From positions 1 through 45,563 of the forward strand of contig NZ_NIDE01000012.1 of assembly GCF_002197845.1 (NCBI RefSeq): a stretch of DNA of 45,563 bases, given 5' to 3'. A program made the translations under genes and the position numbers. A model generated the notes under the pieces. The model worked only from the letters and a program-made list of their open reading frames with translations. It was not told the DNA's origin and searched no databases. This document shows, piece after piece, positions 7,632 through 39,621 of the stretch; within the stretch, counting starts at the first letter, position 1, and every line of letters begins with the position of its first letter. The stretch is from Fimbriiglobus ruber (lineage in GTDB: Bacteria; Planctomycetota; Planctomycetia; Gemmatales; Gemmataceae).

Positions 7632-7665
7632 TGCATTAGGAGGCATCAGCAGGAGGATTGGGCTT

Positions 7666-8472: not shown

Positions 8473-9379
8473 AATTCGGGCCGAGCTGGGCCAGACCCTG
8501 GGTAACTTCCACCCCGGGCAGTTGCCCTATCCCGACGCCCGAGCCGCCGAGCCGCCGGCACGCCGGCGAAACCCGCGGGCGCTGATCGTCGCCGCCTCGC
8601 GGATTAAAACCGATCCCGGTCAGGTGCGGCAGAAAGAGCGTGACCCTTCGTCGGAACGCATCCAGGATTTGGCTAAGTCGATTACGGCGGTCGGCCTTCA
8701 GCAGCCGCCCGGGGTTCGCGAAACCGCCGATGGTATGTACGAGATCGTCTACGGCGAAGGCCGCTTCGTCGCCATGACCGAGGTTCTCGGCTGGACCGAG
8801 ATCGAGGTGATGCGGGTCGATGTCGAGGCAGAAAATTTAATCTGGCACCAGCTACACGAAAATATCCATCGTACCAATCTCGATCCGCTCGATTTGGCCG
8901 CCGCTGTGCGGCAGGCCCAGGCCCAAGGGCACAGCTTGAGCCAGATCGCCGAGCGGATGAGCAAGTCGGAGACGTGGGTGCAAAAGGCGCTCACCGTATC
9001 CGAGCGGCTCAGCGAACCGGCATGGCAGACCCTCGCCGCCTCCGGCGAGCGGCAGGCGATGGATACCGTTTACGCTATCGCCCAGGTGCCGCCCGAAGCC
9101 CAAGAGGAAATCGCCCGGGAAGTGGTCGAGAAGAAACTGACCCGGCGTGAAACCGAGGCGTTGGTCGAGACGGCGAAGAAGAAACGGACGGTCGCAGAGA
9201 CGCCCAAACGTTCCGGCCGCAAGAAAAAAGGCAAGCCGTATGAGACGACGTTGAGGACGGCCGCGGGAGCCAGCGTGACGGTGAAATTCCGCAAGGTGGA
9301 GGTGGAACCATCAGACGTGATAACGGCGCTGGAAGAGGCGCTGCAATCGTTGCGTCAGGGTATACGCTCGGCAGCCTGA
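8435..9379 (+). CDS. parB: Partition protein ParB
   Basis: ParB proteins load on parS and stimulate ParA. The 314-aa protein has a basic N-terminal tail, then a ParB N-terminal domain (IQDLAKSITAVGLQQPPGV, YEIVYGEGRFVAM, ENIHRTNLDPLDLA) and a helix-turn-helix (SLSQIAERMSKSETWVQKALTV). The usual GERRxRA box reads GEGRFVA; that arginine-rich box is the CTP/DNA-clamp motif in the family. A lysine-rich linker (KKKRTVAETPKRSGRKKKGK) leads to a short C-terminal dimerisation region. The start is GTG at 8435 with AGGAGG upstream, overlapping parA by 38 bases. A strong bidirectional hairpin follows at 9453. Confidence 0.93.
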   Translation: MDKLTTPTRQQREIRAELGQTLGNFHPGQLPYPDARAAEPPARRRNPRALIVAASRIKTDPGQVRQKERDPSSERIQDLAKSITAVGLQQPPGVRETADGMYEIVYGEGRFVAMTEVLGWTEIEVMRVDVEAENLIWHQLHENIHRTNLDPLDLAAAVRQAQAQGHSLSQIAERMSKSETWVQKALTVSERLSEPAWQTLAASGERQAMDTVYAIAQVPPEAQEEIAREVVEKKLTRRETEALVETAKKKRTVAETPKRSGRKKKGKPYETTLRTAAGASVTVKFRKVEVEPSDVITALEEALQSLRQGIRSAA

Positions 9380-9452
9380 CCTGGTCCGTCCCATGAGCGG
9401 GGTCAGCCCCATTCCAGACGCGAAAAGAGAAATGTACGCCGGCTGACTTTAA

Positions 9453-9480
9453 AGAGGCCGCCCAGATCTGGGCGGCCTCT
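9453..9480. terminator. Bidirectional terminator between parB and the LRR kinase
   Basis: AGAGGCCGCCCAGA and TCTGGGCGGCCTCT form a perfect 14-bp inverted repeat. The T-run is weak on either side. It sits between the converging parB (+) and kinase (-) genes, where it could stop both transcripts. Confidence 0.7.
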
Positions 9481-9519
9481 TCGCTTTGGGAATAGATGTC
9501 GGCGGGGATGGTGAACCGT

Positions 9520-11841
9520 CTATCGCGACGGCACGGCGTAGGTGCCCGGTCTGTCAGCCGCTACGCGATCTCCATTCGTATAGATTGCTTTAGGTATCAG
9601 GGTCGGCGGGGTGCCGTCTGCGGGGAAAAAAATCACGTACTTTGGCTTTACAGGAAGTTGGAAAACAAAGGGTGCTTTTGCCTCTGAACTTAAATAGAGA
9701 TCGTAACCCCCGACCGTCTTAAAAAAGCCGCCGCTCGAACAAAGCATACCGGGTTTATCCGTATAGCGGTTGTCCGTCAGATTGTTTGGGGTGATTTTTG
9801 CTATGGCCGCGAGAGTCGATTCGGGGAGGGGCTGGATGTTTTTGTCCTTTAGAGCTTGTTTGAGAGCATCGATCTTGTTTATGGGCTTTTCTTTGGGTTT
9901 TTCGACGACCTCGGGCCGGTCGAGCGGGATTTCTGGTCCGGGATCTTTGTCTTTGATCTCAGGTGGCGAATCGGTTTTTTTCTTCTCGACAGGTAAGGGA
10001 TTATCTGTCTTCTCTATGGGTAGTGATGCCTCTTTATCTTTTGGATAGAGGTCGCCGTCGTTCGGCCAAGCGATTTCGCAGGCGGGCAACGCTTTTTTTA
10101 GTTCATCGAGCCCTTTAGCAGATACTTTTGTGCCGATAAGATTGATTCGCCTAAGACTTTCGCATTTATAAAAGAATTTAAGATCATCATCGGTCACTGG
10201 CAAATTATGCAAATTGAGAAATCTCAGGTTTTTTTGGTTCTCAAATTGCACAAGGCCGGGGCCGATCAGCTTCGAGAATTCAAAGCTAACATTGGCCAAT
10301 TGAGTGCAATTTTGAAGGTAAATCAATCCGGAATCAGTTATATCCGTTTCGCCCAATTGGAGGGTATCTAGGTCTTTGCACATTTTGAAGCTGGCTAAAC
10401 CCTTATCGGTCACTTTTGTACCGAAAAGATTAAGGTTAGTTAGGCTGCTGATTCCAGAAAAGTAGGCTACACCCTCGTCGCCAACAGAGGTGCGGCCCAA
10501 TCCCAGGTGCTTAAGGTACAAGCAGCCCTTGAATACTTTCAGGCCATCGTCATCTATCTTGCCATTTTTGGACAGTTCAACATAAGTTAATTTGAATTCT
10601 TTGGGTAATGGAATAGAGGGGGCCGTGATTTCATTATTGATGCAAATTGTCCCGCCGATCGAGAGTACGTACTCGGCGGCTTTAAGATCTTGTGCCAAGC
10701 TACCGGGGGGTGGGGGTACTTCGCCCCCAGTCTTAGAAACGAGATCCTTGTTGACCGAAGGAATTGATCCATCGCCAATTTGGCCAGAGGTTTGCTTTGG
10801 GCGAGAATCCAGCGCCCAGAAAGCCGCGATGAGTAGTGCCACGATTACTGTGCCGATAATGAGTAGCGGCCTGAAAGTTCGATAAGACGGTTTTCTGCTG
10901 TTAGTAATTAATGTGTAATATTCTTCATTGCTTGCGATTGCTGCAAGCTCTTCGGCCAACTCTCTTGCAGTAGGGCGAAAATCCGGTCGTTGTAAGCACT
11001 TTTCGAGGAGTGATACGACTTGAAGTGGGAAATCATAACCTTCGTGCCAACCCTTTCGTAACAATGAACCGGTGACTTCGTAGAAGCCGCGGGTTTCAGT
11101 AATAAACTCTCCGGTGAGACATCGGTACAAAACCGCGCCGAGGCTGTAAATATCGCCAGGAAACGTGCTGTCCTCCCAGGGATCGGCGTAACGATTTCCG
11201 GCCAGACGGATGCCGTATGGCACAGATCGATTTTTTCGTCCTAGCCAGCGCAAGCAATATCCTGTCCAGCGCAAAAGACGGTTAGCGATTGAGTTGTTGT
11301 CCTGTGAGACGGCACGACACTGCCCAAAATCCAGCAACTTCACAATGCCGTCCGTAGTAATTACTAGATTCTCTGGCTTGAAGTCACCGTGAATTCGACC
11401 GAGTTCATCATGGACCAATTCTAGCGCTCTGGCTGCTCCTGCCATCAGCCGGAAGGTCCCACGCCAGGGCAGTCTTGCGTCTGGGACTAAGTAATCGCTT
11501 AGCCGTTTGCCCTCAATGCGTTCCATTACGAGACAAGCTTTACTATCTTCTAAAATGCCTTGTGCTATGTATCTAACAATATGTTTGTAGCCATGATGCT
11601 TGTTTTCATATGCACGTATCTGCTTTAGTATGTCTGCCTCGTCCGCCAGTCGATACTGGCCGACTTCGTCGCGCGGCCATTTAGCTACTTTGACGGCGAC
11701 GCACGAATTGTATTCCGGGACATATACCTCCCATACGACTCCTTGGCCGCCGTCGCCCAGAATTTTCTGAAATTTGTAAGCGCGTGCTGATCTGCTGGCC
11801 GGCGGAATAACCGGGAGATTCGGTCTATCAGGATCGGCCAC
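9520..11841 (-). CDS. Membrane Ser/Thr kinase with leucine-rich repeats
   Basis: The 773-aa protein starts with a Hanks-type kinase domain: glycine loop GDGGQGVVW (about 29-37), VAVKVAKW lysine, HGDFKPENL catalytic loop and LLDFGQ. The arginine of HRD is glycine here, making it a non-RD kinase; the catalytic Asp is kept. A single membrane helix (PLLIIGTVIVALLIAAFWAL, about 325-345) follows. Residues about 395-595 carry seven or so repeats of the type LTNLNLFGTKVTDKGLASF, a leucine-rich repeat array that would lie outside the cytoplasmic membrane. A Pro/Lys/Glu linker and a C-terminal domain of unknown family end the protein. The ECF sigma-factor gene lies directly upstream, overlapping the kinase start by 14 bases. 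A signal-sensing kinase that controls this sigma factor is inferred. Confidence 0.9.
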   Translation of the reverse strand: MADPDRPNLPVIPPASRSARAYKFQKILGDGGQGVVWEVYVPEYNSCVAVKVAKWPRDEVGQYRLADEADILKQIRAYENKHHGYKHIVRYIAQGILEDSKACLVMERIEGKRLSDYLVPDARLPWRGTFRLMAGAARALELVHDELGRIHGDFKPENLVITTDGIVKLLDFGQCRAVSQDNNSIANRLLRWTGYCLRWLGRKNRSVPYGIRLAGNRYADPWEDSTFPGDIYSLGAVLYRCLTGEFITETRGFYEVTGSLLRKGWHEGYDFPLQVVSLLEKCLQRPDFRPTARELAEELAAIASNEEYYTLITNSRKPSYRTFRPLLIIGTVIVALLIAAFWALDSRPKQTSGQIGDGSIPSVNKDLVSKTGGEVPPPPGSLAQDLKAAEYVLSIGGTICINNEITAPSIPLPKEFKLTYVELSKNGKIDDDGLKVFKGCLYLKHLGLGRTSVGDEGVAYFSGISSLTNLNLFGTKVTDKGLASFKMCKDLDTLQLGETDITDSGLIYLQNCTQLANVSFEFSKLIGPGLVQFENQKNLRFLNLHNLPVTDDDLKFFYKCESLRRINLIGTKVSAKGLDELKKALPACEIAWPNDGDLYPKDKEASLPIEKTDNPLPVEKKKTDSPPEIKDKDPGPEIPLDRPEVVEKPKEKPINKIDALKQALKDKNIQPLPESTLAAIAKITPNNLTDNRYTDKPGMLCSSGGFFKTVGGYDLYLSSEAKAPFVFQLPVKPKYVIFFPADGTPPTLIPKAIYTNGDRVAADRPGTYAVPSR

Positions 11842-12460
11842 GAGCTTTCTCCAGAAACGGGTTAGTGATCACAAGCGAAGCGGTGTATCTTTTGGAAATG
11901 TCCACGGGTGAAATAGCGAGTATTTCTGCTGCTTTTACTTGGTCCCAACCAAAATACACAATCAAATCATTTACCGCGCGGAGCGATGAGGGAAGCTTTC
12001 CTGCTGCTCGGTGGTATGCTTTCCACGCGGTAATTTGTCTTTGGATGGGCTTGTCGGAAGCTTCGAGATGAGCCAGTCGCTCAATCAACCAATTTCGCAT
12101 AGCGCTTGCCGCACGCGTATAAAAATCCTTGACGTGAATGGGTTCAGAATCACGAAAAATAGCGGCCTGGAATTCGGCAACTAGTTCCGGTGACGATGAG
12201 CTTATTGTAATCGCTTCATATCTTAATTCTTGGTTAGTTACTGCAACAATCGTGGCCAGTCGCCCTACCATGTCCCGGATTATGGCGCGTTCGCCCTCAT
12301 TACGCTTAATTTTGACATTTTCAGCGTTTTCACTGATCTCTTGCGCGATAGATGAACCAAGCCATGCTTCTATTTGTTTATGACGTAATGGTGTGCCCGC
12401 AGATGTTGATCTTTCAGACGGTGTAGGCCACGCTGGTTGTTTTGCAGGGTCTTTGGCCAT
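11828..12460 (-). CDS. ECF-like sigma factor, partner of the LRR kinase
   Basis: The 210-aa protein resembles planctomycete ECF sigma factors. DFYTRAASAMRNWLIERLAHLEA matches the end of region 2, and LPSSLRAVNDLIVYFGWDQVKAAEILAISPVDISKRYTAS is a region 4 helix-turn-helix that would read the -35 element. I start at MAKDPAKQP (12460), which has GAGGAA at the right distance. The open frame runs up to 12673, but that part is arginine-rich and lacks support. No anti-sigma gene is nearby. The next gene is the LRR kinase, with a 14-base overlap, so the two are coupled. ECF factors regulated by phosphorylation from a neighbouring kinase are known elsewhere (EcfP/PknT in Vibrio); here it is an inference. 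Confidence 0.78.
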   Translation of the reverse strand: MAKDPAKQPAWPTPSERSTSAGTPLRHKQIEAWLGSSIAQEISENAENVKIKRNEGERAIIRDMVGRLATIVAVTNQELRYEAITISSSSPELVAEFQAAIFRDSEPIHVKDFYTRAASAMRNWLIERLAHLEASDKPIQRQITAWKAYHRAAGKLPSSLRAVNDLIVYFGWDQVKAAEILAISPVDISKRYTASLVITNPFLEKARGRS

Positions 12461-12695
12461 GACCATTTCCTCTGTGTGCAGTATGGCGGTTCGGGAAGTA
12501 AGGAGGAACGCAAACTGACGGCATTGTACCCTTCTTGCCGCTTGTTTTCGACTTTTCCTAATCTGCTTCGGCGAACTACGGAAGCGGTGTGGACGGCAAT
12601 GAATTTTGCCCGCGTTGCGACCGCTGCCGCTACTTGTCCGCGGGGAGTTAAAGTAAGCTAACAGTAGAGGCAATTGTCAGCCAAGAGGCTCGTTT

Positions 12696-19982: not shown

Positions 19983-21071
19983 GTGGCCAAGAAGAAACCG
20001 ACCCCAAAATCCACGCCGCCGGCGAAACGGGCTACCGTACAGCCGGCCGGGTACGTCGAACTGCTCGACGCATTGAAAATCCGTATTCGCTCCAGTCAAA
20101 TCAGGGCCGCGGTCGCGGTCCATCGAGAACTCGTTACCCTTTACTGGCAAATCGGTCGGGACATCCTGACACGTCAGGAGGCCGAAGGCTGGGGGGCCAA
20201 AGTCATTGACCGCCTCGGTCGGGATCTCCAAGCCGAATTTCCCGGAGTTGCGGGATTTTCACCCCGCAACCTGAAATACATGCGGGCCTTCGCCGAGGCA
20301 TGGACCGATGAGGCAATTGTGCAACGGGTCGTTGCACAAATCCCGTGGGGGCACAACATCACCTTGCTTGAGACTCTTAAGGACCGCAAAGAACGCGAAT
20401 GGTACGCCCTGGCGACGGTGGAATACGGATGGTCCCGCCCCGTCCTCGTTCACCAGATTGAAACGGGGGCTTTTGCCCGCCAGGGGAAGGCCATTACGAA
20501 CTTCGAGAAGACCCTGCCGCCGCCGCAGTCGGACCTCGCCCGGGAAGCCCTGAAAGACCCTTACACGTTCGATTTTCTGGAGTTGCAAACCGAACATCAG
20601 GAGCGGGAGTTAGAGACGGGCCTTCTTGCCCACATTCGTAAATTCCTCCTCGAACTCGGGGCCGGGTTTGCGTTCGTCGGCCAACAGGTCCACTTGGAAG
20701 TCGGCGGGCAGGATTTCTACCTCGATTTGCTCTTCTATCACTTGAAGCTCCGCTGTTACGTCGTGCTGGACCTCAAAGCGAAGCCGTTCACCCCGGAATT
20801 TGCCGGCAAAATGAACTTCTACCTCTCGGCCGTGGATGATCTGCTGCGGCACCCGGACGACAAACCCTCGATCGGAATTATCCTGTGCAAATCGCGCAAC
20901 GAAGTGGTGGCAGAATACGCCCTACGTGACCTGACCAAGCCCGTCGGAGTATCGAGCTACGTCACCAAACTGGTCGAAACCCTTCCGGCCGCCTTCCGTG
21001 ACCAACTCCCCAACGCCAAACAACTCCGCGACGCCATCAAAGAAGCCACTTCGACGATCGATCCAGGCTGA
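19983..21071 (+). CDS. YhcG/DUF1016-family PDDEXK nuclease-domain protein
   Basis: The 362-aa protein matches the YhcG plan. A DUF1016 N-terminal domain (IRAAVAVHRELVTLYWQIGRDIL, GWGAKVIDRLGRDLQAEFPGVAGFSPRNLKYMRAFAEAW, QIPWGHNITLLETLKD) is followed by a C-terminal PD-(D/E)XK fold. Its active-site stretch FYLDLLFYHLKLRCYVVLDLKA holds the Asp and the DLK lysine (residues about 245-266); many members have ELK instead of DLK. The start is GTG at 19983. Family members are often found beside restriction-modification genes or on mobile elements, but their substrate is not established. No methylase is nearby. The XRE gene is divergent and a 19-bp repeat follows. Confidence 0.88.
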   Translation: MAKKKPTPKSTPPAKRATVQPAGYVELLDALKIRIRSSQIRAAVAVHRELVTLYWQIGRDILTRQEAEGWGAKVIDRLGRDLQAEFPGVAGFSPRNLKYMRAFAEAWTDEAIVQRVVAQIPWGHNITLLETLKDRKEREWYALATVEYGWSRPVLVHQIETGAFARQGKAITNFEKTLPPPQSDLAREALKDPYTFDFLELQTEHQERELETGLLAHIRKFLLELGAGFAFVGQQVHLEVGGQDFYLDLLFYHLKLRCYVVLDLKAKPFTPEFAGKMNFYLSAVDDLLRHPDDKPSIGIILCKSRNEVVAEYALRDLTKPVGVSSYVTKLVETLPAAFRDQLPNAKQLRDAIKEATSTIDPG

Positions 21072-21168: not shown

Positions 21169-21510
21169 ATGTTCCAGCCCCGCTTTACCATCACGCCGGC
21201 GATTACCAAGGCCCTCATGGAGATCGAGGCCAACCGCCAGATGGTGGCCGGATTGCCCCTGACCGCCAAGATGCTCGACTCCCTGCGCCGCACCGCCCGG
21301 CTGCTTTCCACCCACTACTCCACCCAGATCGAGGGCAACCAGCTTTCCCCGGCCCAGGTCCAGGCCGTCATCGCCGGCGAGGGGAATTTTCCCTGCCGGG
21401 AACGCGACGAGGTCAAGGACAATTACCGCGCGCTCGAACACGTCGAGGCGTAGGGCCGGCGGAAAGCGACCATCAACGAGCAGGTCATCCGTAGCCTCAC
21501 TTTTGAGCCA
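21169..21510 (+). pseudogene. Fic-family protein, N-terminal fragment
   Basis: The frame starts at ATG 21169 with AGAGGA upstream. It encodes the Fic N-terminal domain with the inhibitory-helix motif STQIEGN (S/T-x-x-x-E-G type) and LSPAQVQAVIAGEG. A TAG stop occurs at 21451-21453 inside DNYRALEHVEA. After it the same frame continues with GRRKATINEQVIRSL, which is again Fic-like, and then homology ends. The catalytic HPFxxGNGR half is absent. Fic enzymes AMPylate proteins; this remnant cannot. The ECF gene begins right behind the break, so the region is a junction. Confidence 0.8.
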
Positions 21511-21562
21511 GGCGGGGTATACTATGGGGGTCCGTAGGTCTACCTGCAGCGCGGGAGATGTC

Positions 21563-22192
21563 GTGGTTAACCTCCTACCGGCGGAAAGCGACCGAAGCCC
21601 GGAAAACACACGTGCGACCCTACTCGACCGACTCCACGCTGGCGACCGAGTGGCGGCCGACGCGTTCGCGCGGTATTACCGACCCCTCGTGTACGATTAC
21701 GCGAGCCGATGGTTACAGCCGGCCGATGCGGACGAAGTGGCACAGGAGGTATGCTTCCGCATGTGTCGGCGCCCACTTAAGTACAATCGCGAATTGAAAC
21801 CTGGCTCGTTCCGGGCCTACCTCCGCGTGGTCGTACGCAACGCGGTCAACGCTTTCTTCAGAAGGCGAGCCGCGGAGGAAGGCCAGGGTCCTTCGGTCGG
21901 CGTCACCGACCTGCCAGCGATCCCGGACATTGACCTGGGCGAATTGGACGAAATTCTCGCCCAACGCGATCTCATAAGGCGGGCACTTGAGTTCATCCGG
22001 CTGGATTTCGATCCCGTCAATTGGGCGGCTTTCGTCCGCGTGCGGCTGGAGGGCGAGGACGCGGCCAAGGTCGCCGCCGATCTCGACAAGAAGGCATCCA
22101 CGCTGCAAGTCGCCTACAACCGCATTATGAAGCGGTTGAGTGAAGAGATTGGCCGGATGGGGGGGCGGAGAATTCCCCTCGGATTCGCGTAA
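21563..22192 (+). CDS. ECF-type RNA polymerase sigma factor
   Basis: The 209-aa protein has sigma region 2 (AADAFARYYRPLVYDYASRWLQPADADEVAQEVCFRM, with the DADEVAQE polymerase-binding helix, then FRAYLRVVVRNAVNAFFRRR). Region 4 is RVRLEGEDAAKVAADLDKKASTLQVAYNRIMKRLSEE. I start at GTG 21563 with GGGAGATG upstream; the frame can reach 21503, inside the Fic remnant. A TATACT -10-like box lies about 40 bases upstream. The next gene, an exported protein, starts 83 bases later, and a membrane kinase follows it, all on the same strand. No anti-sigma factor is visible, so control by the kinase is plausible. Confidence 0.88.
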   Translation: MVNLLPAESDRSPENTRATLLDRLHAGDRVAADAFARYYRPLVYDYASRWLQPADADEVAQEVCFRMCRRPLKYNRELKPGSFRAYLRVVVRNAVNAFFRRRAAEEGQGPSVGVTDLPAIPDIDLGELDEILAQRDLIRRALEFIRLDFDPVNWAAFVRVRLEGEDAAKVAADLDKKASTLQVAYNRIMKRLSEEIGRMGGRRIPLGFA

Positions 22193-22274
22193 CTCTAAGG
22201 GTTGCGCTGCATACCTGCGGTGACGGCCGCTCCGCCGACGCTCGGTCGGGGGCCGATCACCCGGAGAACAGGTT

Positions 22275-24080
22275 ATGAAACGCAGGCTGCTCAAAACGTT
22301 CGCGGTAGGGATGCCCTTGTTTGCTGGCGGGCTGGGGGTGTACAGCATCGCCGCCCCGCCGAACAGTCCCACCTCGCCCGTCGCCGCTGCTCCGTTGCCC
22401 GCCACTCCTGGAAGCATCGAAGGGGTGAAAGAGACGCCGTTCAGTTTCTTCGACACCGTCACCGGCGGGCAGGTGACCATCTACGAAAGCGTGGTCGATC
22501 CCAAACGATATTACATGAGTCCAGTATTTTGCATTACCCCGTGGCCCGACGGCGATCACGAGAAGAAGTTCCTCGAAACCCCGGTGAGCGGCGGGTACGA
22601 GTACCACTTCCGCGTGGTCTACTTCCACTCCGGCATGGAACAGCAGGCGATCGACACGCTGAAGAAGCACGGCGTCACGCCGGGACATGTCAGCCCGATG
22701 GTGGTGTCGGCCGTCGGGTACACCGTCCGTGGCGTGCCGGCTGCCACGGTGACGCCTCTGGGGGAGGTGGGCACCTGCCTGCACCTAGGCATGGCCCCCG
22801 GCGTGCTGACGGTGCGGGTGCCGGAATCGGGCAACCGCGACTTCCGTGCCCTCCTGGACAGCGACAAGGGCGTGGGCGTCCGCATCGACGCCAAATGCTA
22901 CTACAACGCCATCGACCTGAAACGGGCCGTGCTCCATTGGGGCGTGGACGAAATCCGCGAGTCCGAGGCGTACAAGAAGCTCGCCACCGATGGCGGGCAG
23001 TTCGTGACCGCGGAGCAGGTTCACGGCGTCTTCCAGTCTGTCTGCAAGCTGCCGAAATTCGTTGAGTTCAGCGATGACGTGTTCTTGGCCGAGACGCTGC
23101 ACAAGCGGGCGGACGAGTTTTTCAAGAAACTGGTGGACGATTCGCGGGAGTGGGCCATCCGCAATGAGAAGGACGCCGAGGCACTCGACGCCGAGCTGCG
23201 GAAGGGCACCGGGCTGAAGGCGACGGACTACCAGCCGAACGTACAGATGGTGAAGTTCCTGAATACCGTGCGGACCGTTACCGACCTGAAGACGGCCAAT
23301 GAGCACGCCAAGACCGCGTTCCACACCACCACCACCGGCGGGAACGGGAACGTCGGGTTCCGCTACGGCCCGTTCAGCATCGGCCTGGGGGCGAGCCGCA
23401 ACTGGGTGCAGGGCGGGAGCGAGATGTTCAAGACGGAAAATGACTATAAGGCGTTCCGTGACGAGTATCTGACCAAGCGTGGCGACGAAGTGATCATCAC
23501 GCCCCGCTCGCTCAAGTTGGTGGAGAAGGCCACGCTCACCGCCCGCCTGAGTTGGACCGCCTCCGCCATGATGCTGCAACCGCTCCACATGGCGAAAAAC
23601 TTCACCGTCAGCCAGTACAGCGGCCCCGCTGTGGCGACGAAGGAAAAGCTCCTCGACGAGCAGAAGAGGTTGACGCAGAAGCTGGCGGAGGCGAAGACCG
23701 CGGTGGTGAAGCAGATCGATGTGCTGGTCGCCATCCCGGACTGGACCGAGACGCGTCAGCCGGATTGGCCGGAACACTTCCTCACTGCCATGATGATCCA
23801 AGATCAAAATCAGTGTTTTCACGGTGGGAAGAACGAAATCGAAGTGGCTCTCAAAGCGGGCACGATTGATAAGGACTGGGCCGAAAAGCGGTTGGTCGGT
23901 ATCAACAGCGGCTGTGAAGAAGCCCGCAAGTACGCGCCGAAGATGGATGCTCATCGCAAGAGCCTCGAAGACCGGCGGACCGCCGAGAAGAAAACGCTGC
24001 TCGACCTCATGAAACAACAGGAAGACACGCAGGCTGAGTTGAACAAAGTGAGCGACTTGCTGGCCCGCCGACTGTGGTAA
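22275..24080 (+). CDS. Large exported protein of unknown function, 601 aa
   Basis: The N-terminus MKRRLLKTFAVGMPLFAGGLGVYSIAAP is a signal peptide or signal anchor, followed by a Pro/Ala-rich stretch. The middle has no recognised domain; it includes a glycine-rich GGNGNVGFRYGPFSIGLGASRNW segment (about 355-375) reminiscent of a beta-hairpin. The C-terminal 150 residues form helices with coiled-coil character (KEKLLDEQKRLTQKLAEAKTAVVKQ and RTAEKKTLLDLMKQQEDTQAELNKVSDLLARR). It lies between the ECF sigma factor and the membrane kinase and may be sensed by, or secreted under control of, this pair. That is inference from gene order. Confidence 0.75.
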   Translation: MKRRLLKTFAVGMPLFAGGLGVYSIAAPPNSPTSPVAAAPLPATPGSIEGVKETPFSFFDTVTGGQVTIYESVVDPKRYYMSPVFCITPWPDGDHEKKFLETPVSGGYEYHFRVVYFHSGMEQQAIDTLKKHGVTPGHVSPMVVSAVGYTVRGVPAATVTPLGEVGTCLHLGMAPGVLTVRVPESGNRDFRALLDSDKGVGVRIDAKCYYNAIDLKRAVLHWGVDEIRESEAYKKLATDGGQFVTAEQVHGVFQSVCKLPKFVEFSDDVFLAETLHKRADEFFKKLVDDSREWAIRNEKDAEALDAELRKGTGLKATDYQPNVQMVKFLNTVRTVTDLKTANEHAKTAFHTTTTGGNGNVGFRYGPFSIGLGASRNWVQGGSEMFKTENDYKAFRDEYLTKRGDEVIITPRSLKLVEKATLTARLSWTASAMMLQPLHMAKNFTVSQYSGPAVATKEKLLDEQKRLTQKLAEAKTAVVKQIDVLVAIPDWTETRQPDWPEHFLTAMMIQDQNQCFHGGKNEIEVALKAGTIDKDWAEKRLVGINSGCEEARKYAPKMDAHRKSLEDRRTAEKKTLLDLMKQQEDTQAELNKVSDLLARRLW

Positions 24081-24146
24081 CCGCTGAACGCCTTTCACGC
24101 CGGCCGGGGCAAACCCGGCCGGCTTTCGTTGTTCCCGGAGTGTATC

Positions 24147-25532
24147 ATGCTCGCCCCCCGTCCGTCGGACGACGAACTGCGGGCCTTCCAGAACGGCAAA
24201 CCGTCGAACGCCGTGGAACAATGGCTCGACGCCGACCCGGGCGCCGCCGCGGTTCTAGCCATGCTTCCCGCCGTCGGGTTGGCGGCAGACGTGGCCGGGT
24301 TGTCGTCCATGTTGGCCGCGAACGACCTGCTACTTGAAGCAGGCCTACCTCCTCCGAACCCAACGGTCCGGTTCGTCCAGTCGCTCCCGACGATCGGCAA
24401 TCACCGCATTCTGCGGGAACTCGGTCGCGGCGGGATGGGAGTGGTCTATCTGGCCCACGACGCCGACCTGAACTGCAAGGTGGCGATCAAGATGATCCTG
24501 CCGGAGTGGTCGGGCGACGCCGATTTGCATGCCCGCTTCCGCCGCGAGGGTCGGGCGCTCGCCGGGCTGCGTGGGAAGGAGGGCGTGGTAACGGCGTACT
24601 CCGCCGGGTTCGACCACGACCCACCGTTTCTGGTGATGGAATACCTGGAAGGGGCGACGCTCGAACATTGGTTGCCGGCGCGACCCGGGCCGGCGACGGC
24701 CGAAGACGTGCTGTGGGTGGCGGAGCAATCGCTCGCCGCACTGTCCGCCGTTCACGCCGCCGGGCATGTCCACCGCGACATCAAACCGAACAACTTATGG
24801 GTGGCGAACGGCAGTGTGAAGCTCCTCGATTTCGGCGTCGTCACCCATGCCGGCGCGGACACCGGGAGGGCCGGCACACACGGGTACATAGCACCGGAAC
24901 AGCAGAGCGGCGGTACGGTGGACGGGCGGGCCGATCTCTACTCGCTGGGGGCGGTGCTGTACCGCATGGCCACCGGCCGCCCGCCCGTCGGCGTCGCCGA
25001 CGAACCCGACCCGCTCCGGCACCTACCGCGAGAACTGTCCGCGTTCATCCGCCGACTGCTTGCCCACAAGAAGGAGGAGCGGCCCGCGCACGCAACGGCG
25101 GCGATGGAAGAGTTGCGGGCCGTCCGCGCCCGGGTTCCTCTGCCCGAGTCAGAACGGCAGAAGGAGCGGCTGGAGTGGGTTCTGCTCACCGCGGGATTGG
25201 CCGCCGTCCTGGGTATAATCGGGGTATGGTGGTTGCTCGACCGCGCTGCGGTAACTCACCGGGCGGCGGAGCGGGATGCGGTCGTCGAGCAGATTCGAGA
25301 AACGGACCAAGCATTCGACCAGTTGGCTAAGGAACTTGACGCCGCCGCGAAAGCGCTGGAGATGGCGAAAGCAGCCGACTTGAATGGGGCGCCGAACGCC
25401 GAAGCCCTGATGAAGGCGACCGCGCAATTCAACACGGCTTGGAATAACTATCAGAGAGCACGGGATCAGGTCCTCCACTCCAGCGGCCGCCGTAAAGAAT
25501 TGCTCGACCGATTAAGAAATATAGATAAATAA
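24147..25532 (+). CDS. Membrane Ser/Thr protein kinase
   Basis: The chosen start is ATG 24147 (MLAPRPSDDELRAFQNG) with GGAG upstream; a TTG at 24129 is less likely. The protein of about 461 aa has an N-terminal planctomycete-type segment (residues 1-80), then a complete Hanks kinase: GRGGMGVVY (about 93-101), VAIKMILPE lysine, HRDIKPNN (about 210-217), LLDFGVV and YIAPEQ. A membrane helix (WVLLTAGLAAVLGIIGVWWLL, about 343-363) leads to a C-terminal helical domain of about 95 residues outside the membrane. That domain resembles the matching part of the truncated kinase at 25802. All catalytic residues are present, so it should be active. Confidence 0.92.
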   Translation: MLAPRPSDDELRAFQNGKPSNAVEQWLDADPGAAAVLAMLPAVGLAADVAGLSSMLAANDLLLEAGLPPPNPTVRFVQSLPTIGNHRILRELGRGGMGVVYLAHDADLNCKVAIKMILPEWSGDADLHARFRREGRALAGLRGKEGVVTAYSAGFDHDPPFLVMEYLEGATLEHWLPARPGPATAEDVLWVAEQSLAALSAVHAAGHVHRDIKPNNLWVANGSVKLLDFGVVTHAGADTGRAGTHGYIAPEQQSGGTVDGRADLYSLGAVLYRMATGRPPVGVADEPDPLRHLPRELSAFIRRLLAHKKEERPAHATAAMEELRAVRARVPLPESERQKERLEWVLLTAGLAAVLGIIGVWWLLDRAAVTHRAAERDAVVEQIRETDQAFDQLAKELDAAAKALEMAKAADLNGAPNAEALMKATAQFNTAWNNYQRARDQVLHSSGRRKELLDRLRNIDK

Positions 25533-25801: not shown

Positions 25802-26710
25802 TCACTCTTTTTTGTCCTGCATAGCGGCCTTTGACCCCAAGCGGTCAAGGAGATTGGCCCGCGTGCGGTGGGCATCGTCGATCCGAGTCTTGGCGGAGTT
25901 GTACCGATCCATCGCGTCCCGGAACCGTTCCGCCGCTTTGAGTCGGGCAGCGGCGTCCGCCTTCCCGTGCAGATCAATGGCTCGGGCCGCGTCCATCTCC
26001 TTGACCGCTTCGGACAACTCGTCGAGGCCGCGGTCCAGTTCCACCTCGGTCGCGCGGATGCGGTCAACGTTTCGCGCCTGCTCCGCCCGCACCAGTAGCC
26101 ATCCGACAATGAGGAGGCCGAGCGTCGCTGATAATCCGATGGTCAGCCATGCCCAGGGGTTCGATGGCGGCTTCAACTCGGCCAGTTCGATTTGCTCCGG
26201 TGTGGGAACGGCCTTCAACTCGGCCAACTTGGTCAGCGCGGCGTGGGCGGATGCGGGGCGCTTGGCCGGTTCCTTGTCGAGGAGTTCGAGAATAAAACCC
26301 CGCAGGGCCGGCGGTAGTTCCTGGAACTTGGGTTCGTCCGCGAGGTTCGCAACCGTGCCGACGTGCTTGCCCGTCGCCATCTCGTACAGCACCACGCCGA
26401 CAGAATAGAGGTCGGACTTCGTGTCGGCCTCGGCACCTGCCGCCACTTCCGGGGCCATGTATGCGGCCGTCCCCGCCGGCATCGTCTCCTGGCCGGCGTG
26501 GGCGGCGATGCCGAAGTCGAGGAGCTTGATCTTCCCGTGCGCGACCCACAGGTTTCCCGGCTTGATGTCGCGGTGGATCAGCCCGGCGTCGTGGGCGGCC
26601 GCCGTCCCCGTCAAAGTGTGCTCGGCGAACCAGGCCACATTCGCCGCGGCTTCCTTGGTGCCGGTGGCGGTCAGCCACTGATCGAGGTTCACCCCTTCCA
26701 GGTACTGCAT
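25802..26710 (-). pseudogene. Ser/Thr kinase lacking its N-lobe, paralogue of the facing kinase
   Basis: The frame retains HRDIKPGNLW (about residues 45-54), LLDFGIA, MAPEV, a membrane helix (WAWLTIGLSATLGLLIVGWLLV, about 186-207) and a C-terminal helical domain. It lacks the glycine loop and the ATP-anchoring lysine; kinase similarity stops upstream of PFLVMQYLEG, around 26735. Beyond that the DNA is unrelated in this frame, so a rearrangement has removed the 5' part. It cannot be a normal kinase. If translated from the ATG at 26710 it would still place the outer domain in the membrane. Its outer domain and that of the kinase at 24147 share a pattern ending in LLDRL, showing common origin. 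The two genes converge with a 269-base gap. Confidence 0.8.
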
Positions 26711-28575: not shown

Positions 28576-29265
28576 CTATTTCATCTTAACGACAAATCGG
28601 TTTTCTTCGCGGTGGTCTCCACTCGACCGTTTCCAGACCTCTCGCAACGTGACACGAGACCACGCCGGGCACCGGAGTTCCAGCCCATCCCTCAACTGCT
28701 GCTCGGTCATACTCGGGGGCACTTCCAGTTGCGCGAAAACCTGAACTTCTGGCAGCCCATCCAAACCTCCCAGATCGTCCTTGTCTGCTCGGAAATAGCG
28801 AAGATTAACATCGTTCGTGGCCAGAAAGTCCGCTACTGGATAGAGCAGCCCACATTCGTCTTTCAGCACCTCGACGTTGAGGTTGTAGAGTCGATCGAAC
28901 CCAACCAGCGACCGCAACTCGAAATCACCGGCGTCCTTTTTCAGATGTTCCGCCATTAAGCGGAGCTTTTCCTCGTTATCGCCGCCGTGGGTCAATTCGA
29001 AGCGAGAGCCTTGGCTGCGTTTCATCCGCTCACCCAGACATGACTCCACGTTGACTCTGAAGCGTTTAAATTGTTTGGTGACGTAGGCCAGAATGCCCGG
29101 ACGGTCGTACCCATCGACTGTGACTAGCAGGGTATCCGGGTAGAAGCTACAGTTCAGCGTGGCGAACGGCTCGTCTGTACCACGGTGGTGCAAGCTGAGC
29201 GTGAGTAACTCGCCCGCGCCCGTGCTGAAGCTGCCACCCCACATACTCATCAGTGCATTGCTCAT
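28576..29265 (-). CDS. Tandem ACT-domain protein (GcvR-like)
   Basis: I start at ATG 29265 (MSNALMSMWGG), with AGAGGAAAG upstream; the frame reaches 29436, but that extension is basic and unsupported. The 229-aa protein has two ACT-like domains. The first is LLVTVDGYDRPGILAYVTKQFKRFRVNVESCLGERM (about 45-90), where DRPGILA is the ligand-loop signature. The second is LNVEVLKDECGLLYPVADFLATNDVNLRYFRADK (about 130-165). This layout is like GcvR and related glycine-pathway regulators, which bind small molecules or proteins rather than DNA. What it regulates on a plasmid is unknown. Confidence 0.78.
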   Translation of the reverse strand: MSNALMSMWGGSFSTGAGELLTLSLHHRGTDEPFATLNCSFYPDTLLVTVDGYDRPGILAYVTKQFKRFRVNVESCLGERMKRSQGSRFELTHGGDNEEKLRLMAEHLKKDAGDFELRSLVGFDRLYNLNVEVLKDECGLLYPVADFLATNDVNLRYFRADKDDLGGLDGLPEVQVFAQLEVPPSMTEQQLRDGLELRCPAWSRVTLREVWKRSSGDHREENRFVVKMK

Positions 29266-29533
29266 CTGCTTTCCTCTTTCTGAAGACAAACCGATTTTGT
29301 TATCGCCCTTGATACTTCGCTCTTCCCTGTCACAGAGGGATGGCAGGGATAAGTCTTCTCGTTGACAACAAAAGGTGGTTTTTTGCACTTTTAGAGTTTT
29401 TTGCCGCCGGTTCAGAAATGACCATTTTCTAGCCATGACTTAGTAACAGGGTGCAAAACAGCCTCACTTGCCGTTCTTCTGAACCCAGATTGGGGCCTAG
29501 ACAGTCACACGGACGAATGGGAGGGTTTCAAAT

Positions 29534-32327: not shown

Positions 32328-32921
32328 ATGACGGATTCAAGTCCTCTGACGCTCAAATTGCTTGTTTCACCGGACCAAATTCTCCAGGACCGGGTTAAAT
32401 CGGACGTGTTTAATATTGGCCTGGTTTATGCTTCGCGCACGTTTACCGCCTCGCGATCGCGATCTTTTAATATCGATCCCGGTGACGTAGCGACGCATGT
32501 TGTTTACGCCTTGACGGCCTCGGTTCAACACGAACAAAAATGCGATCCGGTGGCGGGGGGGCGTTATTCGAACTTAAGTCTCGATAGCCCCGCCTGTGGT
32601 CGAGTGATTTCGAGCTTCTGCGTCAACGCTTTCCGCGACCTCTGTCGCCGCGAAGAACGTTTCTTGAGAAACCGGGAATCGAGCGACGTCGCGGTAACGC
32701 CGGATTCACGCGCTGACTTTCGTCATCAATTTGAAGAACAAGACGAAGTGACCCAACGGGTGGAAAAACTTCGACGGATATGTACCGATGGCGAGCAGAA
32801 AGTCGTGGAAGAACTTCTTCGCTCGGCCATGAACTACCGCCAAGCGGCGGCGAATTTGGGCGTGACTGAAAGTTACCTCTCAAAAGTTATCCGGCGGATT
32901 CGAGAAAAGAACACGGACTAA
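32328..32921 (+). CDS. ECF sigma-like regulator next to the origin, 197 aa
   Basis: ATG at 32328 has GAGG about eight bases upstream. The C-terminal 50 residues form a sigma region 4-like helix-turn-helix (GEQKVVEELLRSAMNYRQAAANLGVTESYLSKVIRRIREK). The middle segment SSFCVNAFRDLCRREERFLRN resembles the end of region 2. The N-terminal part is less clear and lacks the usual DxxDxxQE polymerase-binding helix, so it could be a sigma-derived DNA-binding protein rather than a true sigma factor. It ends about 40 bases before the iterons and about 340 before rep, and may regulate replication; this is inference. Confidence 0.65.
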   Translation: MTDSSPLTLKLLVSPDQILQDRVKSDVFNIGLVYASRTFTASRSRSFNIDPGDVATHVVYALTASVQHEQKCDPVAGGRYSNLSLDSPACGRVISSFCVNAFRDLCRREERFLRNRESSDVAVTPDSRADFRHQFEEQDEVTQRVEKLRRICTDGEQKVVEELLRSAMNYRQAAANLGVTESYLSKVIRRIREKNTD

Positions 32922-32958: not shown

Positions 32959-33131
32959 ACCCACCACCGAATCCCGGTATTAGCGGGTATCAGCTCCTTG
33001 AAATCTAATACCGGGATTCGGTGGTGGGTTTACCGGGATTCGGTGGTGGGTTTTGACGCGTGAATACCGGGATTCGGTGGTGGGTAATACCGGGATTCGG
33101 TGGTGGGTAATACCGGGATTCGGTGGTGGGT
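32959..33131. repeat. Iteron array of the replication origin
   Basis: A 21-bp unit (core ACCGGGATTCGGTGGTGGG, framed by T on each side) occurs once inverted at 32959-32979. Five direct copies lie at 33009-33029, 33031-33051, 33065-33085, 33088-33108 and 33111-33131. Start-to-start spacings are 22, 34, 23 and 23. Iterons directly upstream of a RepA-type gene are the classical binding sites of the initiator, so this is the likely replication origin. The copy number of units may be affected by the assembly break inside the last one. No exact DnaA box was found nearby. Confidence 0.9.
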
Positions 33132-33204
33132 TTGGCCACTTAAAATGTTTTGTACCAGCAGTTTATAGTTTCCCAACTCTTATAACTAATGTAAACAAAG
33201 AAGA

Positions 33205-33231
33205 ACAACAACCGCGGCCCCGTGTTGTTGT
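33205..33231. promoter_or_regulatory. Inverted repeat in the rep leader
   Basis: ACAACAAC and GTTGTTGT form an 8-bp inverted repeat with an 11-base GC-rich spacer, 33 bases before the rep ATG. It does not resemble the iterons. It may be an operator or an mRNA hairpin controlling rep. The same element lies in copy 1 at 83-109. Confidence 0.35.
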
Positions 33232-33263
33232 CTCTTGGATTATTATTTGAATGAAGTAAAAAC

Positions 33264-34877
33264 ATGACCCCGTTACCTACCTCCAAATGCGATGAATCGC
33301 CCGTCCAGGATACGACCTGGAAGGACGAAATGAACTTGTGCGAGTTACCCGTCAGCACGATCAGTGAGCGTGCTCCGGAAGGGTTGGCAACCCTCGATTT
33401 CTTTATCACTGAGGCGGACGGGGAAACGGTGCGCCGTGTGTCGATCATTCCTCCAAGCGACGATCAGCTTCAAAAATTAGTCCAGGTTGCTTATCCGGGC
33501 CTGATGCCAGAATCAGAAGTGTCGGCTCGTCCGAGTCGGCGACGGAAGAAAGAGCCCGATCCTCCGGTGGTATTGCCACCGAATGTCGAGAAGTTGTTAG
33601 CCAGTGTCCGGGGACTGCCGAACCCCATCGATGAGGACGTGCTGCTGGCGTTGATTCAACTGACGCGCAAAAACGGATTTGAAAACCGGCGGGTGAATTT
33701 CAGCCTCTACGAAGTCGTAAAATTACTCGGTTGGGATGATGGTTCAAAAAGTTATACGCGGGTTATTGTATCATTGCTGCGCTGGAAGGCCGTTCTGCTC
33801 ACCTACCACGAAAGTTGGCGGGATAACTCGGAGAGACGGTGGCTAAGCCGAACGTTCAACATGCTCGATGAGGTAAGCATTTACACCAGCCCGGGGCGAC
33901 GTAGCAAGGCCGACAGCAATGGTCAATCACAGCTTCCGTTCTCGTCCTTTGCCTGGAGCGAGGTGGTATTTAAGAGCTTCCAAGACGGCTACCTGAAGAA
34001 CCTCAATTTCCCGGTCTACAAGGCGCTTGGCAGTCGAATCGCCAAGCGGATGTATCGCTTCCTCGACAAGTGCTTTGGTCGGCTCAAAGGCCCTTCGGTG
34101 TCGTTCGATTTGCGTGATTTCGCGTGCGGTCATATTGGGCTGATCGGGGATTACGAACCGTGGAAGCTCAAGCAGGTGCTAGCTCCGGCCATCCGCGAGC
34201 TTGAGGAAACGGGAATCATTGCTCCTTTGTCGTCGGACCAGCGTTACGAAAAAACAGGTCGCGGAAAGTGGTCCATCGTGTTCCAGCCACCGCGGCCTTC
34301 CCGGGTGGTGATGGGCAAGACGATCCCAGTCACAGATTCGGTCACATCGCTGGTGGCTGCCCTGGAACAACATGGGGTGACGGGCAAAACGGCGGCAGTA
34401 TTGGCGGCGGAATTTCCGACTGAGCAGATTGAACTCCAACTCGACGTGCTGGAATGGTGGCAGTCCACGAATCGGAAACCGGTGATTAAAGACCCAGCGG
34501 CCTGGCTTACAAAAGCAGTGCGCGACAGTTACTCACCGCCTAAAGAATACGAACCGAAAGTCGAGCGATTACGGAAAGAACAAGTAGCCGAGGAGCAACG
34601 GCAAAAAGTGGAAGCGGCTAAGCGTCGGCGAGACGAAGCCGAACGAATGGCGGCTGCGGAGCGGGCGACCGCTGATGGGGCTAAACGAGCACACGTCGAG
34701 CGTTTTCTCGCCTCCCTCTCGCCGGCCGCCCGGGAGGCATTTGAACGTCAAGCGATCGCGGAGGCCCCGCCACTCTATCGGGAAAATATCCGACGTGGAA
34801 ATGGACCACTTGCGGAAACTAGTCGGCAGTTGGTGATCGAGGAAGCGGTGTTGCGGGCAAGCCCGATGACAAGCTGA
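33264..34877 (+). CDS. Replication initiator protein (RepA/RPA family), intact copy
   Basis: The 537-aa protein should bind the iterons just upstream and open the origin. Residues about 110-350 match the replication initiator A type (PF10134-like). ENRRVNFSLYEVVKLLGWDDGSKSYTRV is the first winged-helix part, and FKSFQDGYLKNLNFPVYKALGSRIAKRMYRFLDKCFG is the conserved core. The second winged-helix part follows at FDLRDFACGHIGL. The N-terminal 110 residues are Pro/charge-rich and may be flexible. Residues about 425-480 are a long charged helix (RLRKEQVAEEQRQKVEAAKRRRDEAERMAAAE), probably a coiled coil. The start ATG has only a weak ribosome site (GAAGTAAAAAC), fitting low expression. A terminator hairpin begins at its stop codon. 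Confidence 0.88.
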   Translation: MTPLPTSKCDESPVQDTTWKDEMNLCELPVSTISERAPEGLATLDFFITEADGETVRRVSIIPPSDDQLQKLVQVAYPGLMPESEVSARPSRRRKKEPDPPVVLPPNVEKLLASVRGLPNPIDEDVLLALIQLTRKNGFENRRVNFSLYEVVKLLGWDDGSKSYTRVIVSLLRWKAVLLTYHESWRDNSERRWLSRTFNMLDEVSIYTSPGRRSKADSNGQSQLPFSSFAWSEVVFKSFQDGYLKNLNFPVYKALGSRIAKRMYRFLDKCFGRLKGPSVSFDLRDFACGHIGLIGDYEPWKLKQVLAPAIRELEETGIIAPLSSDQRYEKTGRGKWSIVFQPPRPSRVVMGKTIPVTDSVTSLVAALEQHGVTGKTAAVLAAEFPTEQIELQLDVLEWWQSTNRKPVIKDPAAWLTKAVRDSYSPPKEYEPKVERLRKEQVAEEQRQKVEAAKRRRDEAERMAAAERATADGAKRAHVERFLASLSPAAREAFERQAIAEAPPLYRENIRRGNGPLAETSRQLVIEEAVLRASPMTS

Positions 34878-34922
34878 GCATCTAAATAGCTCCCGCCAAA
34901 GGCGGAAGTAGTGCTCATTTTT
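34875..34922 (+). terminator. Hairpin and T-run after rep, second copy
   Basis: Same element as 1752-1799: an outer TGAGCA/TGCTCA arm, an inner CCGCC/GGCGG hairpin and TTTTT. Confidence 0.55.
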
Positions 34923-35652
34923 CAGAACTTTCCTTGTACACCGAGGACTGGACGCGGAAGTGGGTGCGGGTCTCGAACCAATCGAACGTGAGATCGAGCA
35001 GCTCCTGCATCGTCTGGCATCGGTGGTTGCGGGTGACCCGTCCGGTCCGCCAGTGGATGCTCCCGGCCAGGTACCGCTTCTCGTTATTACCCGGCGTCTC
35101 GACGGCTGCCTGCTGGCCCTGCGTCATCCACTGGCACCCGATCTTCGGGTTCCGGTTCACGTCCACCTCGTCCAGAAACACCGCCGTCTCGTCCGCCGGT
35201 AGACCGTTGAGCAGCGCCCGGAGAACCCGCAGCTTCTTTTCTCGGTCGGGATCCTTCGGGCGAATGGAAGGCCGAGGCCGCCGCCACACCAGGTCGGCCT
35301 CTCGGAGCCACCGGCGGACGGTCTCCCGCCCGACCGACGTCCCGAAGTCCTCCCGCAGTACGATGGCGGCCGCCTCGCAGGTCCACCGGGAGCGGGCGAA
35401 CCCGAAGTGGGTGGGCGAGAGGGTCCGCACCCACCGGACGACCAGGAACGCCCAGATGTGGATGCCGGACCGCTTCCGACCCCGGGGCCGGCCGAACACG
35501 GCGTCCACCCCCTCCTTCTCGAACCGGGCCTTCCACCGGCGGATCGTGGCCCACGGCAAGTCGTCGGCCAGGAGCAAGAGGATGTGCGCCCGGAGTCGGA
35601 CATCGGGCTCGGGAGAACGGCGATAGTGGTCGAAAACGGCTTTGTTTTCCAC
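34915..35652 (-). pseudogene. IS630-family transposase with internal deletions, second copy
   Basis: Identical to 1792-2529. The first catalytic Asp (FLDEVD) is present; the second Asp and the Glu are lost by an in-frame internal deletion between HWRTGRV and TRNHRC. Confidence 0.75.
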
Positions 35653-35792
35653 AACTATCGGGCTTTTGAGTCCTCATGGGCAGTGCTTATTCCTGCCCGG
35701 AATGTCGGTAGTAATCGGATGTTCATACTTGGTGTCAGATGCTTGATTTGTGGGCGGGTTCGATAGCGTCACCGCCCCACCCCGCGATCAGA

Positions 35793-36023
35793 TCAGACGT
35801 GCGTCAAATCGGGCACATAGTAATCCAAGATGTCGCGGCCGGGTGACAGTGAGACTTTGCGTTCCTCCGTCGGCTCCCAGGAGTTAGATGAAGGGACAAC
35901 GTCCAAAACGCTTTGGGTACGAGGGTTGAAAAGAGCCGTCGCTTTATCGACCAAGGCCGAGAAGCCGATTGCCAGGAAATCGGAAAGCCCACAGTGGCTG
36001 GACGCGTACAGGATGGTTTTCAT
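35793..36023 (-). CDS. Small hypothetical protein, 76 aa, second copy
   Basis: Identical to 2670-2900, with the same GAGGG ribosome site before the ATG. Function unknown. Confidence 0.45.
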   Translation of the reverse strand: MKTILYASSHCGLSDFLAIGFSALVDKATALFNPRTQSVLDVVPSSNSWEPTEERKVSLSPGRDILDYYVPDLTHV

Positions 36024-36237
36024 CGGTGACCCTCAGTCGTTAGATAGTTATGACTTGTTTCGTTTGCCTTCACTATGGATGGTGACGACAGGGGAAAACG
36101 CTGACAGGAAAATGCGGGGAACAAAAGTGGTGAAAACTACGGTTCGAGCGAGTTTGCTTTTGAACCGACGACACAGAACCATTTGGCTTGCAACCAAAGA
36201 CAGATGGCCACGCTTTACAAACCTTTCCCTGCCGGCA

Positions 36238-36651
36238 TTACTTGGCAGGATCGACCCCGATCGTGGTGACCACCGTGGCCTCGGGATCGCGGGATACTGC
36301 CGATGGCTCCTCGGCCACCGCTACCCAGGCCACCCGATGAGCTAGGATCGCTTCGAAAAGTGGCCGCAGGTTTTTCCCGCAGATCGTCACCGTGCCGGTA
36401 GCAAAGAACAGCGTCACCCCTTCCGACCGGTTGAACGTGCAGCGCCCGAGCAGGCCGTAATCGAAACTATCGCTGTCGCCGCCGGTCAGTCGTAATTCGA
36501 GCATGAAGGCGATTTGCCGCGCTCCACGCAACTTGGCGTAGCAGGCATGCTCCTCGGGCGGTTCCTCGGCTTCCTTGGCGGGCGCGGCCGGCGCAGGCGA
36601 TGGCTTCTCGCCCCGGGCCTGACGGACCAGGTCACTGATGCTACCGTTCAT
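36238..36651 (-). CDS. Relaxase-coupled hypothetical protein, 137 aa, second copy
   Basis: Identical to 3115-3528. Starts at MNGSISDL with GGGAGG upstream and overlaps the relaxase stop by 11 bases. Confidence 0.7.
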   Translation of the reverse strand: MNGSISDLVRQARGEKPSPAPAAPAKEAEEPPEEHACYAKLRGARQIAFMLELRLTGGDSDSFDYGLLGRCTFNRSEGVTLFFATGTVTICGKNLRPLFEAILAHRVAWVAVAEEPSAVSRDPEATVVTTIGVDPAK

Positions 36652-39415: not shown

Positions 39416-39521
39416 GGTCGATGGGTCGAGCTGGGTGTGGAATCCCGACCCTAGCATTTCGCCGGAACGACCTCAATCTTTTCGTGCGGTCGCCCCCTTT
39501 GTTTTTCCTTCAGGCGTGTCC

Positions 39522-39538: not shown

Positions 39539-39556
39539 CCGTAGGTCAGCCGACTC

Positions 39557-39574: not shown

Positions 39575-39621
39575 CCGCGTCGTTGGCGACCCCTACGGTC
39601 CACTCTGTGGGATCATTCCCA

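What the first reader, a model, noticed from the sequence alone, without database searches (positions are those of the whole stretch)
21563..25532. Three-gene set: ECF sigma factor, large exported protein, membrane kinase
The same strand and short gaps suggest an operon. The exported 601-aa protein has no known family and ends in a coiled coil, and the kinase has an outer helical domain that could bind it. Sigma, exported ligand and receptor kinase together would form a self-contained signalling circuit that I have not seen described.
Basis: inference. Interest (0 to 1): 0.7.

Follow-up and report, generated by a model that had tools for sequence, protein, structure and literature searches.

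The report
Plasmid sigma factor with anti-sigma kinase
A small plasmid of a planctomycete bacterium carries a gene switch (sigma factor) and a membrane receptor kinase whose front end looks able to hold that switch, with the gene of an exported protein of no known family between them; such pairs are common in these bacteria, and the exported protein's part in it is unproven.

Summary
The three genes are real and in the stated order, but on a circular plasmid of about 33.1 kb. The exported protein is an orphan in every collection searched. "Operon" is doubtful: a strong terminator-like hairpin separates the exported gene from the kinase. The sigma-kinase half is a common planctomycete pairing: 42 of 50 related sigma genes examined have a kinase within 1.1 kb.

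What goes beyond the claim is how such pairs may work. In 41 of those 42 loci the nearest kinase begins with an Hx3Cx2C anti-sigma-type domain, against 2 of 21 unpaired kinases of this genome; as a profile it matches solved anti-sigma factors (DdvA, ChrR, RsiW). The window's kinase has a zinc-less version, and its sigma keeps the acidic region 2.2 motif that ECF43-type, phosphorylation-activated sigmas lack. Best reading: an anti-sigma receptor kinase. Whether the exported protein is its ligand is neither shown nor excluded. Sigma-gene-kinase layout recurs once in this genome, with an unrelated calpain-like gene, and in none of 30 regions from relatives. New variant of a known kind.

The parts
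21563..22192 (+). ECF sigma factor, 209 aa (GTG start); region 2.2 reads DADEVAQE
22275..24080 (+). 601-aa exported orphan protein; signal peptide by inspection; helical C-terminus
24099..24123 (+). terminator-like hairpin (10 GC pairs, loop 5) followed by TTTCGTTGTT, starting 18 bases after the exported gene's stop and ending 23 bases before the kinase ATG
24147..25532 (+). membrane Ser/Thr kinase, 461 aa (ATG start; TTG 24129 possible)
24162..24338 (+). kinase residues 6-64: zinc-less class I anti-sigma-like domain (W, D and A in place of H, C and C)
24408..25085 (+). protein kinase domain (PF00069)
25170..25241 (+). single transmembrane stretch (by inspection)
   Evidence: sequence
25242..25529 (+). 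outer domain, about 95 aa; 39% identical to that of the truncated second kinase, three other hits in 59 genomes only at E 0.004-0.009
25802..26710 (-). second kinase without its N-terminal lobe (no glycine loop, no catalytic Lys, no anti-sigma domain); outer domain kept; likely a remnant

Best explanation
A plasmid-borne ECF sigma / receptor-kinase switch of the planctomycete type in which the kinase is itself the anti-sigma factor. Its N-terminal 64 or so residues are a zinc-less class I anti-sigma domain that would hold the sigma (inferred from homology), followed by a kinase domain, one membrane span and a helical sensor outside. On a signal to the outer domain the kinase would become active and phosphorylate its own anti-sigma domain or linker, or the bound sigma, and so release an otherwise competent sigma (inferred). 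The exported orphan gene follows the sigma gene without a terminator-like site between them and ends at its own terminator-like hairpin, so it would be made with the sigma and in excess of the kinase; it is most likely an output of, or accessory to, the switch (inferred). Shown: gene order, domain content, pairing and anti-sigma domain in the family, acidic sigma motif, hairpin. Inferred: binding, phosphorylation, release, role of the exported protein.
For: Kinase within 1.1 kb of the sigma homologue in 42 of 50 loci, and Hx3Cx2C before the kinase domain of the nearest kinase in 41 of those 42, against 2 of 21 unpaired kinases of this genome; own genome 14 of 15 against 2 of 21, Fisher p 4e-7. 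The profile of 28 such N-termini matches solved anti-sigma factors: DdvA 1.2e-7, 3hug_B 2.1e-6 (RslA, name recalled), ChrR 2.5e-5, RsiW 3.2e-5, and a CHAT-domain protein 6.8e-7; 5 of 10 tested reach Pfam's zf-HC2 cut-off. The window's version: with C17 and C2:862735 as a 3-row profile it matches the zinc-bearing profile with probability 95.7, E 1e-8; alone P 4.9e-4, against 0.017-0.64 for 18 motif-free controls; the model has short helices at 8-15, 21-29, 33-39 and a longer one at 50-64, pLDDT 82. The sigma keeps DADE; 48 of 49 aligned homologues keep acids at both places of that motif. About 44% of class I anti-sigma domains lack the zinc motif (PMC7406223, passages), and release of a sigma on phosphorylation of its anti-sigma factor is described (PMC8999054, passage).
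Against: The window's three zinc ligands are lost; alone it scores only 4.5 bits on the zinc-only HMM (E 0.048). The 3-row profile finds no solved anti-sigma factor significantly (DdvA E 0.25, below haemoglobins). Foldseek found no anti-sigma structure; VIA-align gave ChrR only Z 3.9 over 45 residues. In one search the known zinc-less C2:862735 and the motif-bearing control L030 scored as noise because the stretch given missed their domain. Two unpaired kinases with the motif have no ECF sigma nearby, so the domain may have other partners. In the sigma tree the window's sigma does not group with that of C17, although the kinases do (96/90); AU p 0.08, not rejected. A possible ECF-type AAC..CGT spacing in 21401-24200 occurs only at 22279, inside the exported gene, so no autoregulation was seen. 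The exported protein's role rests on position alone.
Confidence: 0.5

Rival explanations
1. One reading: the exported protein is a dedicated ligand of the kinase's outer domain, and sigma, ligand and receptor form a closed loop.
For: Same strand and short gaps. The closest kinase relative (C17; clade 96/90) also has a large gene between sigma and kinase; these two kinases and C2:862735 are the three zinc-less ones.
Against: No homologue of the exported protein anywhere searched; the middle gene of C17 is unrelated (Peptidase_C2; no hit of the exported protein among the ORFs of 50 loci); hairpin before the kinase; none of 30 regions from relatives has such a middle gene.
Confidence: 0.15
2. Direct phospho-activation as in ECF43 (EcfP/PknT, EcfK/PknS): the kinase phosphorylates the sigma, which cannot bind RNA polymerase before.
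For: ECF-kinase linkage is the mark of that kind (PMC8103513, PMC8999054, passages). EcfK keeps a partly acidic motif (QATE) and is also controlled by phosphosites in the linker (PMC13147305, passages), so an acidic motif does not by itself exclude direct phosphorylation.
Against: The window's sigma has DADE where ECF43 members lack the acids; 48 of 49 aligned homologues keep acids at both places. The anti-sigma-type domain in 41 of 42 linked kinases would be unneeded.
Confidence: 0.2
3. Accidental neighbours on a plasmid: the exported gene is cargo with its own terminator, and sigma and kinase come from different lineages.
For: Orphan gene; hairpin; sigma and kinase trees place the window differently; a truncated kinase beside it shows rearrangement; the gene tables of two related planctomycete plasmids list neither sigma nor kinase.
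Against: Pairing of this sigma family with kinases is far too common for chance; the sigma tree is poorly resolved and AU does not reject a joint origin (p 0.08); the PLSDB gene tables are incomplete.
Confidence: 0.25

Closest known systems
ECF43 sigma / Hanks-type kinase pairs (EcfP-PknT, EcfK-PknS)
   Same: ECF sigma gene close to a membrane Ser/Thr kinase with an extracytoplasmic sensor part (passages of PMC8103513, PMC13147305).
   Different: The sigma here keeps acidic residues in region 2.2 (DADE); the kinase has an anti-sigma-type N-terminus; a gene for an exported protein lies between.
Class I anti-sigma factors (ASDI; DdvA, ChrR, RsiW; RslA by recall)
   Same: N-terminal domain related by profile, with the helix order 3 short + 1 long.
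   Different: Fused to a kinase; zinc ligands replaced; binding not tested.
Planctomycete / Gemmataceae ECF-STPK loci (Jogler 2012, recalled; expansions of kinases and ECF proteins in Gemmataceae, passage of PMC11032199)
   Same: Pairing, kinase domain, one of about 20 such loci in this genome.
   Different: Plasmid-borne, zinc-less anti-sigma domain, orphan exported gene between the two, hairpin before the kinase.

Membership tests
ECF sigma factor | sigma2 and sigma4 regions only, about 200 aa | tested here: met
   TIGR02937 over residues 31-195, PF04542 over 37-103
ECF43-type (phosphorylation-activated) ECF | acidic DAED motif of region 2.2 replaced by uncharged residues | tested here: not met
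   DADE in the window; 48 of 49 aligned homologues acidic at both places
ECF43-type (phosphorylation-activated) ECF | gene next to a Hanks-type kinase | tested here: met
   same strand, one gene between; adjacent in most homologous loci
Class I anti-sigma domain (ASDI) | sequence-profile kinship to ASDI | tested here: met
   3-row profile with the window against the 28-row profile: prob 95.7, E 1e-8; 28-row profile against solved ASDI factors. Weak for the window alone and the 3-row profile does not reach solved factors itself
Class I anti-sigma domain (ASDI) | Hx3Cx2C zinc motif (present in about 56% of ASDIs, not required; PMC7406223) | tested here: not met
   W, D, A at these places
Class I anti-sigma domain (ASDI) | three-helix bundle plus helix 4 | tested here: inconclusive
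   helices as expected, pLDDT 82, pTM 0.51; no Foldseek match; ChrR Z 3.9
Class I anti-sigma domain (ASDI) | binds and inhibits the cognate sigma | not testable with these tools
   needs a bench test
Hanks-type receptor Ser/Thr kinase | kinase domain with catalytic Lys, HRD and DFG, a membrane span and an outer domain | tested here: met
   PF00069 E 6e-37; motifs and span by reading

The most novel reading that the evidence does not exclude
A mobile anti-sigma receptor kinase with its own extracellular partner: in a kinase lineage that lost the zinc site of its anti-sigma domain, control has passed to a dedicated exported protein encoded between sigma and kinase (an orphan on the plasmid, a calpain-like protease on the chromosome), the intervening terminator setting the ratio of sigma and partner to kinase.
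Probability: 0.15. Interest if true: 0.75.

Novelty: new variant of a known kind. Interest (0 to 1): 0.42.

Why it matters
Several ECF groups linked to kinases keep the acidic motif and their mechanism is described as open (PMC8999054, passage). Anti-sigma-type N-termini on 41 of 42 kinases linked to this sigma family offer a direct, testable answer: kinase and anti-sigma factor in one receptor. I found no paper that states this in the open-licence library; the main classification paper (Casas-Pastor 2021) and Jogler 2012 are not held, so it may be in print. That a plasmid carries such a switch adds a possible route of transfer.

Tried and rejected
Structure of the exported protein: single-sequence AlphaFold, pLDDT 42, not used for a fold search. 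PDB sequence search for it: one hit, 3kd4_A, E 0.029, not pursued. Outside match of the phylum search: G233, 48 residues including the signal region, E 0.0095, taken as chance (there at most 3 candidates a genome were scored). Remnant of the exported gene beside the truncated kinase: none found. Defence reading: the kinase hits PADLOC kinase models (PD-T4-6 and others), as expected of any Hanks kinase; no partner gene was found, so I do not file it there. zf-HC2 in the window's own N-terminus: no match. Structural search of the N-terminal model: no useful Foldseek hit. ECF-type and sigma-70-type promoter motifs: nothing useful upstream of the sigma gene. First count of the zinc motif (28 of 31 kinases chosen) was replaced by the full count. 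Error of mine: searches used an out-of-frame window kinase; corrected. One search also read several minus-strand loci in the wrong orientation; corrected. The 21 unpaired control kinases are the unpaired ones among the 28 best-matching kinases other than the window's own, not a random sample, and 'unpaired' means not beside a sigma match; only two of them were checked further. One search scored 20 of these 21.
Full report
What is there. The window is the whole of contig C12 of a 12.36-Mb, 20-contig genome. From 488 on, its first 12,440 bases are repeated exactly at an offset of 33,123; before 488 the copies differ by one base in register. It is therefore best read as a circle of about 33.1 kb read 1.37 times. 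It carries a replication initiator (RPA), ParA- and ParB-type proteins, a TrwC/MobF relaxase, a TraG-type coupling protein and a tyrosine recombinase: a plasmid. The closest listed relaxases include those of planctomycete plasmids (K2D, Paludisphaera, Singulisphaera; 36-39% identity); the gene tables of two of these list no sigma factor or kinase.

The three genes. Sigma 21563-22192, 601-aa exported protein 22275-24080, kinase 24147-25532, all on +, gaps 82 and 66 nt. The exported frame has the codon-position pattern of a real gene. Between it and the kinase lies a hairpin of 10 G-C pairs with a T-rich tail. In one turn of the plasmid plus 22 stretches of this genome (327,145 bases) hairpins this strict occur 8 times, 7 outside called genes although only 13.9% of the bases are. 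This argues against a simple three-gene operon, or for a kinase made at a lower level.

The exported protein. It has no relative in its own genome, in 98 other relatives, in 391 other genomes of the phylum, partly the same ones, except for a chance-level match of 48 residues, in plasmid and phage records, or by short-peptide scans of GTDB genomes and viral contigs. The scans by peptide pattern find close relatives only. There is no usable model.

The pairing. Of 20 other sigma homologues in this genome, 15 have a kinase within 1.1 kb of the sigma domain: 14 downstream on the same strand and 1 divergent. One (C17) has a kinase 4.3 kb downstream with other genes between, and 4 have none in the 13-kb stretch fetched. 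In 30 regions that I chose from the best matches in relatives, 27 have a kinase within 1.1 kb: 18 same-strand downstream, 7 on the opposite strand, 2 same-strand upstream. Of the 3 without, two end near a contig end. None of the 30 shows sigma, full gene, kinase on one strand at such a distance. ECF-kinase pairs are a known kind (passages of PMC8103513 and PMC8999054).

The anti-sigma domain. In 41 of the 42 close pairs (own 14 of 15, relatives 27 of 27) the nearest kinase has Hx3Cx2C before its kinase domain; of 21 unpaired kinases of this genome 2 have it, and neither of those two has a sigma homologue nearby. The profile of 28 of these N-termini matches solved class I anti-sigma factors at E 1e-7 to 3e-5, and a CHAT-domain protein. 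The one exception among the 42 (C2:862735), C17 and the window carry the same domain without zinc ligands: profile against profile, probability 95.7, E 1e-8. The window's N-terminus alone gives P 4.9e-4 against 0.017 or worse in 18 motif-free controls, but only 4.5 bits on the zinc-only HMM, no Pfam zf-HC2 match and no significant hit in solved structures through the 3-row profile. The model of this domain is confident (pLDDT 82) with the expected helices; Foldseek finds nothing useful, and VIA-align places ChrR at Z 3.9 over 45 residues. Zinc-less domains are about 44% of the family (PMC7406223, passages).

The sigma. Region 2.2 reads DADEVAQE. Of 49 aligned homologues (two in very long frames were left out) 48 have acids at both places. 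ECF43 sigmas, which kinases activate by phosphorylation, have lost them (PMC8103513, PMC8999054, passages), although EcfK keeps one acid and is also controlled by linker sites (PMC13147305, passages). The review PMC8999054 says that linked ECFs outside ECF43 keep the motif and may work differently. An anti-sigma domain on the kinase would be that difference; release of a sigma by phosphorylating its anti-sigma factor is described there for PknB.

History. In a tree of 31 paired kinases the window's groups with C17 (96/90); the sigmas of the same two loci do not group, though AU does not reject it (p 0.08). C17 also has a large gene between sigma and kinase, a repeat protein with a calpain-family protease domain, apparently interrupted by an insert of about 1 kb, unrelated to the plasmid's exported protein. 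So middle genes may have entered this kinase lineage twice, or the space between sigma and kinase may simply take up cargo.

Verdict. The recurring thing is a sigma with an anti-sigma receptor kinase. The exported protein is a single-copy orphan whose role cannot be told from sequence.

Noticed in passing
window 1-12440 and 33124-45563: Terminal direct repeat of about 12.4 kb with one 1-base difference: circular plasmid of about 33.1 kb assembled past its start.
   Followed up: yes
window 25802-26710 (-): Second kinase lacking its N-terminal lobe, 44% identical to the first kinase, outer domain included: likely a remnant.
   Followed up: partly
window 9520-11841 (-): Third kinase of the plasmid, with leucine-rich repeats; the 281-aa ORF upstream (11828-12673) has no Pfam or NCBIfam match.
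   Followed up: no
window 32328-32921 (+): 197-aa protein with a weak sigma-70 match (TIGR02937 E 3e-4, below cut-off).
   Followed up: no
window 19983-21071 (+): YhcG-type PD-(D/E)XK nuclease, strong match to PADLOC candidate defence model PDC-S02.
   Followed up: no
L053 6778-10692 (contig C17): Large repeat protein with calpain protease domain between sigma and kinase, apparently interrupted by about 1 kb.
   Followed up: partly
L144 5217-7226 (-), L145 6802-8445 (-): Kinases with the Hx3Cx2C N-terminus but no sigma homologue in the 13-15 kb fetched: what would they hold?
   Followed up: partly
PDB 8rot_B: A CHAT-domain protein shares the anti-sigma-type N-terminal profile.
   Followed up: no
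window 28576-29436 (-): Protein with weak ACT-domain matches.
   Followed up: no
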